A program made the translations under genes and the position numbers. From NCBI RefSeq assembly GCF_021233415.1, contig NZ_CP089466.1, forward strand, positions 1,798,001 to 1,862,000: a DNA stretch of 64,000 nt, read 5' to 3'. Below the pieces are notes generated by a model, which saw nothing but the letters and a program-made list of their open reading frames with translations, was not told the DNA's origin and did not search any database. The DNA is from Halobacterium litoreum. Its GTDB lineage: Archaea; Halobacteriota; Halobacteria; Halobacteriales; Halobacteriaceae. Of the stretch, positions 24,079 to 25,684 are shown in pieces (within the stretch, counting starts at the first letter, position 1; each line of letters starts with the position of its first letter).

Positions 24079-24153
24079 AGCGGGATGGGATAGCCAGGAG
24101 ATTCCGCCGGGCTCATAACCCGGAGATCGGTAGTTCAAATCTACCTCCCGCTA
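24079..24153 (+). tRNA. Initiator tRNA-Met (CAU)
   Basis: A 75-base cloverleaf. The acceptor stem agcggga pairs with tcccgct, followed by discriminator a. The anticodon arm is ccggg-ctcataa-cccgg, with anticodon cat; the T arm is ggtag-ttcaaat-ctacc. Two features mark it as the initiator rather than an elongator: A1:U72 (archaeal/eukaryal initiators) and three consecutive G:C pairs next to the anticodon loop. The CCA end is not encoded. A low-GC islet begins directly at its 3' end. Confidence 0.93.
24143..24153 (+). repeat. Left copy of an 11-base direct repeat (tRNA 3' end)
   Basis: acctcccgcta is the last part of the T arm and the acceptor stem of the initiator tRNA. The same 11 bases recur at 25595-25605, at the far side of the TnpB islet. 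The wider comparison is gttcaaatctacctcccgcta here against gttcacctcccgcta there. Confidence 0.6.
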
Positions 24154-24219
24154 TCCTGCTGGTTTCTGAAATTGACGCATTCGGCGTTGCTTCTCACCGC
24201 GTAGCCGTGTCGAAAGGTC

Positions 24220-24239
24220 GTGCTTCCTGAGGCGAGCAC
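24220..24239 (+). repeat. Left-end hairpin of the TnpB element
   Basis: gtgct (24220-24224) and agcac (24235-24239) can pair around a ten-base loop. It lies about 50 bases before tnpB, in the position of a left-end recognition hairpin. Weak on its own. Confidence 0.35.
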
Positions 24240-24291
24240 CGAACATCACAAAACCTGAAGTCAGTTCGTCATTTCGTGGGACTGTGGGCTG

Positions 24292-25569
24292 ATGGGGAGA
24301 AACGTCGATCTCGTGAAGACACTAGACTTTCAGTTGGAGATTCAGAGCGGCGACGAGGCAGATTTGCGCTTCGCAGCCAGAGAATCGCGTCGAGCGTACA
24401 ACGAGACAGTCCGACTGGCGAAGGAAGGGGTTGAGTCGGCGAACATTGCGCCGACCGTCGCTGACGAAGTCGATTTGGTTCGCAACACGACCCAGCGTAT
24501 CGTCAACAAGGCGCTCGATGCGGTCGAAAACGGACGGAGTCAGGCGGATGTATGCCTCCCCAGTCACACCAAGTCAGACCCCTATCCAATCAGAGCGAAC
24601 TACACCGAGGGATACGACCTGACTCTCGACGACGGTGAAGTCGCCTTCCGAATTAGCACCAAACCGTACAATCCAGTCCGTGGCGTACTGCGTGGCAGCG
24701 ATGTTCATCTCGACCTCCTGAAGTCTGCACTGTGCGGTTCGGGGTGGGAAATCGGAACGGCAGAAGCGCTCTTCCGACGCGGAGACCCCGAACTCCACGT
24801 CACCGTGACGAAAACGGACGCAGCTGTTCGACGCCCGGAGCAGTCCGAGACGATAATCGGGGTCGACGTAAACGAGGATAACGTCGCTCTGGCGGCTCTG
24901 TCGGACGACGGGGTGGAGGAGACACTAGTCGTCGAGTACCCGGAGGTCAAATCCGAGCGGCATCGATACCTAACGATCAGAAAACGAATTCAGAAGGCCG
25001 GAAAGACGAGTCAGTTCGAATCGCTGGAACAGAAAGAGAAACGGTTCGTGCGAGACCGTCTCCACAAACTCTCGAATTTCATTTCCGAGTTTGCGAATCA
25101 GTTCGAGTCACCCTGTATCGTCTTTGAAGACCTCAAAGACATCCGCGAAGGGCTCGACCTCGGCGCTCGAATGAACCAACGAATACACCGCATCCCATTC
25201 GGCGCGCTGCAGTCCTACACCACGTACAAAGCGTCGTTCAGTGGCATCCCGACAATGCGAATCGACCCCGAGTACACGAGTCAAATGTGCGCAGTCACTG
25301 ACTGCGAACACACCACGTGCTCGAACAGGCGAAAGAATCGGTTCCGCTGTCGAGCCTGTGGCCACCAGGACCACGCGGACCGTAACGCCGCGCTGAACGT
25401 CGCGAAACGAGGAGTACGAGCTCTCAATTGGAATGTGCCCGCTCTCAACAACCTCCCACAGGTACGGAAGGTGCGACGGCGGGCATCGGGGGCCGTGGAC
25501 GCCCCGTCCGTGACCCACGACGCCGGTAGAGGCGACCAGACCGATGGAGTCGTGGGAGTGTTTGAGTAA
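24292..25569 (+). CDS. tnpB: TnpB, RNA-guided endonuclease of IS200/IS605-type element
   Basis: A 425-residue protein of normal length. The three RuvC catalytic residues are all present: D192 (IIGVDVNED), E279 (IVFEDLKDI) and D363 (DHADRNAALN). A zinc finger lies between the last two, with Cys at 333, 338, 343, 353 and 356 (FRCRACGHQDHAD). So the nuclease looks intact. TnpB proteins use an RNA made from the 3' end of their own gene and element to cut matching DNA. An ATG at 24292 is used here, but the family usually begins near VKTLDF, so a GTG at 24313 is possible. The C-terminal 40 residues are Arg/Gly-rich. No TnpA partner lies nearby. Confidence 0.9.
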   Translation: MGRNVDLVKTLDFQLEIQSGDEADLRFAARESRRAYNETVRLAKEGVESANIAPTVADEVDLVRNTTQRIVNKALDAVENGRSQADVCLPSHTKSDPYPIRANYTEGYDLTLDDGEVAFRISTKPYNPVRGVLRGSDVHLDLLKSALCGSGWEIGTAEALFRRGDPELHVTVTKTDAAVRRPEQSETIIGVDVNEDNVALAALSDDGVEETLVVEYPEVKSERHRYLTIRKRIQKAGKTSQFESLEQKEKRFVRDRLHKLSNFISEFANQFESPCIVFEDLKDIREGLDLGARMNQRIHRIPFGALQSYTTYKASFSGIPTMRIDPEYTSQMCAVTDCEHTTCSNRRKNRFRCRACGHQDHADRNAALNVAKRGVRALNWNVPALNNLPQVRKVRRRASGAVDAPSVTHDAGRGDQTDGVVGVFE

Positions 25570-25592
25570 GCCACGGGAAGGCATAGTCCCGT
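25450..25592 (+). ncRNA. Predicted omegaRNA (sotRNA) overlapping the 3' end of tnpB
   Basis: In Halobacterium salinarum, sense-overlapping RNAs from the 3' part of IS1341-type tnpB genes have been described, and omegaRNAs of TnpB come from the same place. Here the 3' coding end is followed by a stem acggga/tcccgt (25573-25578 with 25587-25592), loop aggcatag, which would be the conserved 3' scaffold hairpin. Bases after it, from about 25593, would be the guide. The 5' end of the RNA is a guess. Confidence 0.4.
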
Positions 25593-25594
25593 TC

Positions 25595-25605
25595 ACCTCC
25601 CGCTA
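25595..25605 (+). repeat. Right copy of the 11-base tRNA-end repeat
   Basis: acctcccgcta, identical to the tRNA 3' end at 24143-24153. It directly follows the predicted right-end hairpin of the TnpB element. It could be an attachment-site remnant or the target flank of the insertion. Confidence 0.55.
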
Positions 25606-25684
25606 CTTCTCCTGCAAACCCGACGACGCAGAATTCGGTCACGAACCCGAAAGCGTTTAGCGACGCGTCCGCACGGTTCTGGCG

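What the first reader, a model, noticed from the sequence alone, without database searches (positions are those of the whole stretch)
24079..25605. Intact TnpB islet at the 3' end of the initiator tRNA, flanked by a direct repeat of the tRNA end
A 1.4 kb low-GC segment (about 52% in a sample against 80% outside) starts exactly at the 3' end of the initiator tRNA-Met and ends at an 11-base copy of that tRNA's end (acctcccgcta, 24143-24153 and 25595-25605). Its only gene is a tnpB with all three RuvC residues. tRNA 3' ends are classic integration sites for tyrosine recombinases, but IS200/IS605 elements do not make target duplications. The repeat therefore suggests an older integrative element that lost its integrase, or a TnpB element that inserted beside a duplicated tRNA end. 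An essential, single-copy tRNA as neighbour makes this interesting.
Basis: partly seen in the sequence, partly recalled or inferred. Interest (0 to 1): 0.7.

Follow-up and report, generated by a model that had tools for sequence, protein, structure and literature searches.

The report
TnpB element lodged at initiator tRNA
Next to the initiator tRNA gene of a Halobacterium genome sits a small transposon-derived gene for an RNA-guided DNA cutter, and related elements have settled at the same spot in at least eight other haloarchaeal genomes, with their guide RNAs predicted to match the end of this essential tRNA gene.

Summary
A 1.44 kb low-GC islet (57.7% against about 69%, not 80%) lies between the initiator tRNA-Met and an 11-base copy of its end, and tnpB is its only gene. 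The interpretation changes. A covariance model built without the window finds a TnpB omegaRNA scaffold at 25456-25596 ending in GTTCAC. The right repeat copy is therefore two element bases (AC) plus CTCCCGCTA, the first nine bases of the predicted guide. The family inserts behind the motif TCTAC, and the tRNA reads TCTAC|CTCCCGCTA. Eight other Halobacteria genomes have the same junction at the same tRNA; in three the element splits a second tail copy. Tandem tail copies without an element are common. So the repeat is most likely a pre-existing tail copy, not a target duplication or integrase att pair. No integrase or TnpA supports other readings. The guide plus TCTAC matches empty loci of four relatives over 19-22 bases. 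Most likely: an IS1341-type TnpB element resident in an initiator-tRNA tail copy, retained or homing by RNA-guided cutting of the empty site. Cutting itself is untested.

The parts
24079..24153 (+). initiator tRNA-Met gene (CAT), intact; left copy of the repeat is its last 11 bases
24140..24144 (+). TCTAC, the family's insertion motif (TAM), here inside the T arm of the tRNA
   Evidence: family motif; position
24154..24291 (+). 138 bp left segment between tRNA and tnpB: left element end not recognisable, probably decayed
   Evidence: no hit of the left-end profile and no second TCTAC
24292..25569 (+). tnpB, 425 aa, RuvC D192/E279/D363 and zinc finger (C333, C338, C353, C356) present
25456..25596 (+). 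omegaRNA scaffold overlapping the tnpB 3' end, terminal hairpin shortened
   Evidence: covariance model R1 127.4 bits, E 2e-33; Rfam sot2652 37.9 bits, below cut-off
25591..25596 (+). GTTCAC, conserved right end of the element
   Evidence: same six bases at the right end of the relatives
25597..25616 (+). predicted guide CTCCCGCTACTTCTCCTGCA; first 9 bases equal the tRNA 3' end
25597..25605 (+). CTCCCGCTA, right half of the tRNA-tail copy (genuine part of the direct repeat)

Best explanation
The islet is an IS200/IS605-type (IS1341-like) element without TnpA, encoding an RNA-guided nuclease TnpB and its omegaRNA. It inserted behind a TCTAC motif in a copy of the initiator-tRNA 3' tail (TCTAC|CTCCCGCTA). 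These tails are often tandemly repeated downstream of this tRNA in Halobacteria, so the tRNA stays intact, and the 'direct repeat' is the first tail (in the tRNA) and the right half of a second one. The predicted guide is the DNA right of the element: CTCCCGCTA plus the following host bases. It matches the TCTAC-bearing empty locus of close relatives but nothing behind a TCTAC in its own genome. The likely mechanism is retention or homing: TnpB cuts an empty allele (after loss, or in a mating partner) and recombination with the occupied copy refills it. Shown: anatomy, omegaRNA homology, family motif, recurrence, guide-target match. Inferred: expression, cleavage, homing, and that the window's own left end decayed.
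For: OmegaRNA model from 33 relatives, window excluded, hits 25456-25596 at 127.4 bits, E 2e-33, with 11 pairs showing compensatory change in the family. Right end GTTCAC across the family. TCTAC directly before the left end in nearly all of 78 left-end hits. Same junction after the same tRNA in G019, G158, G269 (= Haloferax profundi), G237, G379, G064, Haloarcula amylovorans and Halorubrum sp. Atlit-26R; in Haloferax profundi, G237 and Atlit-26R the left end abuts GGTTCAAATCTAC or a near copy. Empty relatives have CTTCT.. directly behind the tRNA tail, as right of the element, and G013 has the same downstream gene start. Guide plus TCTAC matches G013 over 22, G004 20, G011 and G018 19 bases. 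No TnpA in the genome. tnpB changes are fewest at codon position 2 (0.147, against 0.226 and 0.369 at positions 1 and 3), so the protein was constrained.
Against: In the window itself no second TCTAC or left end is found between tRNA and tnpB, so insertion into a second tail copy is argued from relatives. The terminal omegaRNA hairpin is shortened and single-sequence folding is not better than shuffles (z -0.24). Third-position GC is 0.67 against 0.93 in a neighbouring gene and below the family median, which fits relaxed constraint or a foreign origin. No nuclease or RNA data.
Confidence: 0.77

Rival explanations
1. Remnant of a provirus or plasmid integrated by a tyrosine recombinase at the tRNA 3' end; the repeat is attL/attR and TnpB is cargo left over after loss of the integrase.
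For: Pleolipovirus SNJ2 integrates at a tRNA-Met gene (PMC5867852) with an att site of about 13 bp at the acceptor end (PMC8371274). Tandem tail copies may themselves be old att sites.
Against: The right boundary is exactly the omegaRNA end GTTCAC, and two bases of the repeat belong to the element. No integrase near the tRNA in this genome. The same TnpB anatomy recurs at this tRNA in eight other genomes.
Confidence: 0.08
2. One TnpB lineage specialised on the initiator-tRNA tail spread through the class by RNA-guided homing, rather than repeated independent insertions.
For: A tree with all seven tRNA-site TnpBs held as one clade is not rejected (p-AU 0.934). The guides start with the same nine conserved tRNA bases.
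Against: Except for the two Halorubrum-type copies, each is more similar to a TnpB elsewhere (57-88%) than to the others at this site; left ends are of different types; long branches can pull these rows together.
Confidence: 0.2
3. The element is now a host-useful RNA-guided nuclease, for example cutting incoming elements that use this tRNA end as attachment site, or acting on the tail arrays.
For: Only one TnpB above cut-off and no TnpA in the genome; protein and omegaRNA still constrained despite large divergence.
Against: No haloarchaeal virus carrying this tail was found in the viral or phage collections; other copies at the site are deleted down to about 300 bp (G379, G064).
Confidence: 0.08
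4. Inert relic: the insertion is old, nothing is expressed or cut, and the site is merely a safe place where insertions survive.
For: Shortened terminal hairpin, low GC3, elevated changes at conserved codons, degraded copies in other genomes.
Against: Intact ORF and catalytic residues after about 37% divergence from the family consensus.
Confidence: 0.3

Closest known systems
IS200/IS605-family IS1341-type (TnpB-only) elements of haloarchaea with sotRNA/omegaRNA (Rfam RF02657 sot2652; PMC12558985, PMC3119063)
   Same: TnpB, omegaRNA overlapping its 3' end, TnpA absent, insertion motif at the left in the family, no target duplication, core-deleted derivatives.
   Different: omegaRNA scores below the Rfam cut-off; insertion motif here TCTAC; copies recur at one tRNA gene with the guide beginning in the tRNA end; unusually diverged copies.
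CRISPR-associated Tn7-like transposons with guides to tRNA genes (own knowledge; review PMC11406308 seen, not read)
   Same: RNA guide directed at a conserved tRNA gene as a safe harbour.
   Different: No Tn7 transposase or CRISPR array; here the guide is simply the flank of a TnpB element and cutting, not transposition, would be guided.
SNJ2-type pleolipovirus integration at tRNA-Met (PMC5867852, PMC8371274)
   Same: Same kind of site, tRNA-Met acceptor end, short repeat at both ends.
   Different: No tyrosine integrase, no viral genes.
E. coli tyrT 3'-tail tandem repeats (own knowledge)
   Same: Tandem copies of a tRNA 3' end downstream of the tRNA gene.
   Different: Haloarchaeal units of mostly 110-157 bp often carry an inverted copy of the T arm; no sequence relation was tested.

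Membership tests
IS200/IS605 IS1341-type TnpB element | TnpB with RuvC D/E/D and C-terminal zinc finger | tested here: met
IS200/IS605 IS1341-type TnpB element | omegaRNA at the tnpB 3' end running to the right end | tested here: met
   (homology; expression not tested)
IS200/IS605 IS1341-type TnpB element | insertion directly behind a short motif (TAM) | tested here: inconclusive
   met in the family and, exactly or nearly, in three tRNA-site copies; left end unreadable in the window
IS200/IS605 IS1341-type TnpB element | no target duplication | tested here: inconclusive
   apparent repeat explained by tail copies in relatives
IS200/IS605 (complete, autonomous) | TnpA Y1 transposase | tested here: not met
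   none in the genome
tRNA-integrated tyrosine-recombinase element | integrase gene in or near the element | tested here: not met
tRNA-integrated tyrosine-recombinase element | att repeats bounding the element | tested here: not met
   right boundary is the omegaRNA end, two of 11 bases belong to it
TldR-type nuclease-dead TnpB regulator | loss of RuvC catalytic residues | tested here: not met
   D192, E279, D363 present
RNA-guided homing/retention element | guide plus TAM matches the empty allele | tested here: met
   in silico only, in related species
RNA-guided homing/retention element | cleavage and copying into the empty site | not testable with these tools
   needs experiment

The most novel reading that the evidence does not exclude
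TnpB elements in Halobacteria use the initiator-tRNA end as a conserved landing and homing site: the tRNA supplies both motif (TCTAC) and guide seed (CTCCCGCTA), and the tandem tail copies behind the tRNA act as spare targets that protect the essential gene, so one guide can work across species.
Probability: 0.3. Interest if true: 0.78.

Novelty: new variant of a known kind. Interest (0 to 1): 0.52.

Why it matters
If the guide is active, a compact nuclease would be aimed at the end of an essential tRNA gene shared by a whole class of archaea, and empty alleles in sister species would be natural targets. That would give a directly testable natural case of RNA-guided homing by TnpB without a transposase, a question left open by the many TnpA-less tnpB genes in archaea (noted in PMC3119063). 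The widespread tail arrays behind the initiator tRNA also need an explanation of their own.

Tried and rejected
Target duplication: rejected, since tail copies exist without the element. Integrase remnant: no integrase nearby. Viral carriers of the tail or of the element junction: 45 and 22 IMG/VR matches inspected, bacterial-looking tRNAs or unrelated DNA; phage records gave nothing haloarchaeal. A second genome match of GTTCACCTCCCGCTA (L051) and one in G351 (L057) have no tRNA nearby and look like chance. Extra copies of the tail in G180, G240 and G272 looked like possible proviral att sites but are tRNA-like copies or tails (one integrase-like ORF near the G180 copy was not pursued). Phylogeny could not decide between one and several origins (the careful tree did not finish). 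Single-sequence folding of the omegaRNA was uninformative.

Full report
Check of the observation. The initiator tRNA-Met lies at 24079-24153. ACCTCCCGCTA occurs only at 24143 and 25595 in the 64 kb window. The one plausible gene is tnpB, 24292-25569, with RuvC residues D192, E279 and D363; its C-terminal half aligns to TnpB/Cas12f chains of solved structure. Neighbours are a DJ-1/PfpI protein and a DUF2298 membrane protein. A contig of a congener, G008, has the length of a Halobacterium hubeiense plasmid in the plasmid collection, so the genus is probably Halobacterium.

The right end is an omegaRNA end. Rfam's sot2652, a haloarchaeal TnpB omegaRNA, matches weakly. A covariance model from 33 relatives, none from the window, with 11 compensated pairs, matches 25456-25596 with 127.4 bits. 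All 33 relatives in that alignment end in GTTCAC. So the element ends at 25596, and the repeat copy at 25595-25605 is AC of the element plus CTCCCGCTA of the flank, which is where the guide starts.

The left motif. A left-end profile found 78 left ends, nearly all directly behind TCTAC. The tRNA's T arm ends in TCTAC followed by CTCCCGCTA, so the motif and the start of the guide are both supplied by the tRNA tail.

Recurrence. A pattern scan of 391 Halobacteria genomes for the junction found it in 8 genomes, in 7 of them (window included) behind the initiator tRNA. Named loci add Haloarcula amylovorans and Halorubrum sp. Atlit-26R; Haloferax profundi is the same locus as G269. Two of the copies (G379, G064) are deletion derivatives of about 300 bp. 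Among 80 named relatives, 3 lie at this tRNA; with about 4,800 TCTAC sites per genome and two target copies the expectation is 0.03 (P 6e-6), or 0.22 (P 0.0016) if only 15% of sites tolerate insertion, which is my assumption. Apart from elements shared by close relatives (L003, L004, L096, L099; L006, L009) I saw no other guide recur.

The repeat. Many relatives without TnpB carry two to six tandem copies of the tRNA tail, mostly 110-157 bp apart, often with an inverted T-arm copy between. By my own count of the table, about 158 of 391 genomes have at least two exact matches; some of these are extra tRNA copies, not tails. In Haloferax profundi and G237 the element's left end directly follows a half tail copy with one changed base (GGTTCAACTCTAC, GGTTCAGATCTAC), and Atlit-26R has a slightly eroded version. 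There the insertion split a second tail copy, with no duplication. In the window the left end is not readable, so this step is inferred from relatives.

Guide and targets. The window's guide behind TCTAC matches G013's initiator-tRNA locus over 22 bases, G004 over 20, G011 and G018 over 19. G013 is an empty site with the same downstream gene start and a degenerate second tail copy. In its own genome the only perfect match is the element's own flank, which follows GTTCAC rather than TCTAC; the tRNA itself matches the guide only over its first nine bases. The guide would therefore spare the occupied chromosome and attack empty ones.

Age and constraint. tRNA-site TnpBs are more distant from the family consensus than others (P 2e-4; rows are not independent). 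In the window tnpB the second codon position changed least, which shows constraint, though GC3 is low, which fits weakening constraint. Each copy except a Halorubrum-type pair is nearer to a TnpB elsewhere than to the others at this site, pointing to several insertions; the tree with all of them in one clade is not rejected, so one lineage remains possible.

Alternatives. No Y1 transposase was found in the genome and its integrases are hundreds of kb away. SNJ2-like viruses do integrate at tRNA-Met (PMC5867852, PMC8371274), which may bear on the tail arrays but does not explain this islet. Searches of the held literature found no report of TnpB elements at the initiator tRNA; most subscription papers are not held.

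Verdict. A known kind of element in an unusual and recurrent place, with a testable predicted guide. Expression, cleavage and homing remain unproven.

Noticed in passing
L024, L026, L029, L030, L036, L041, L217 and many genomes: Tandem arrays of mostly 110-157 bp units behind the initiator tRNA in Halobacteria, each ending in a copy of the tRNA tail and often holding an inverted T-arm copy (GTAGATTTGAAC) and variable hairpins; origin and function unknown.
   Followed up: partly
L247 (G272 contig C2), L252 and other plasmid hits: Large haloarchaeal plasmids carry initiator-tRNA-like copies, some with tandem tails, unannotated in the plasmid tables.
   Followed up: partly
L059, between tRNA and tnpB: In G158 about 1.1 kb of foreign-looking DNA, apparently another insertion sequence, interrupts the left part of the element, flanked by a repeated CTGTGGTTAGA.
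   Followed up: no
L002, L006, L007, L009, L010 upstream of tnpB; L253 1331-1486: Relatives carry a small ORF overlapping the tnpB start (annotated as a DUF2080 transposase-associated protein in H. salinarum L253); the window element lacks it.
   Followed up: no
L006 and L009 guides: Two Halobacterium species have the element at what looks like the same protein-coding site (guide TACAAYTTYTACGTCTTCCAGTAC), perhaps a second conserved target or a shared ancestral insertion.
   Followed up: no
G000:C1:2044899-2045042 (L249): A second, sub-threshold Cas12f1-like TNB match in the same genome, in a 345-codon open frame.
   Followed up: no
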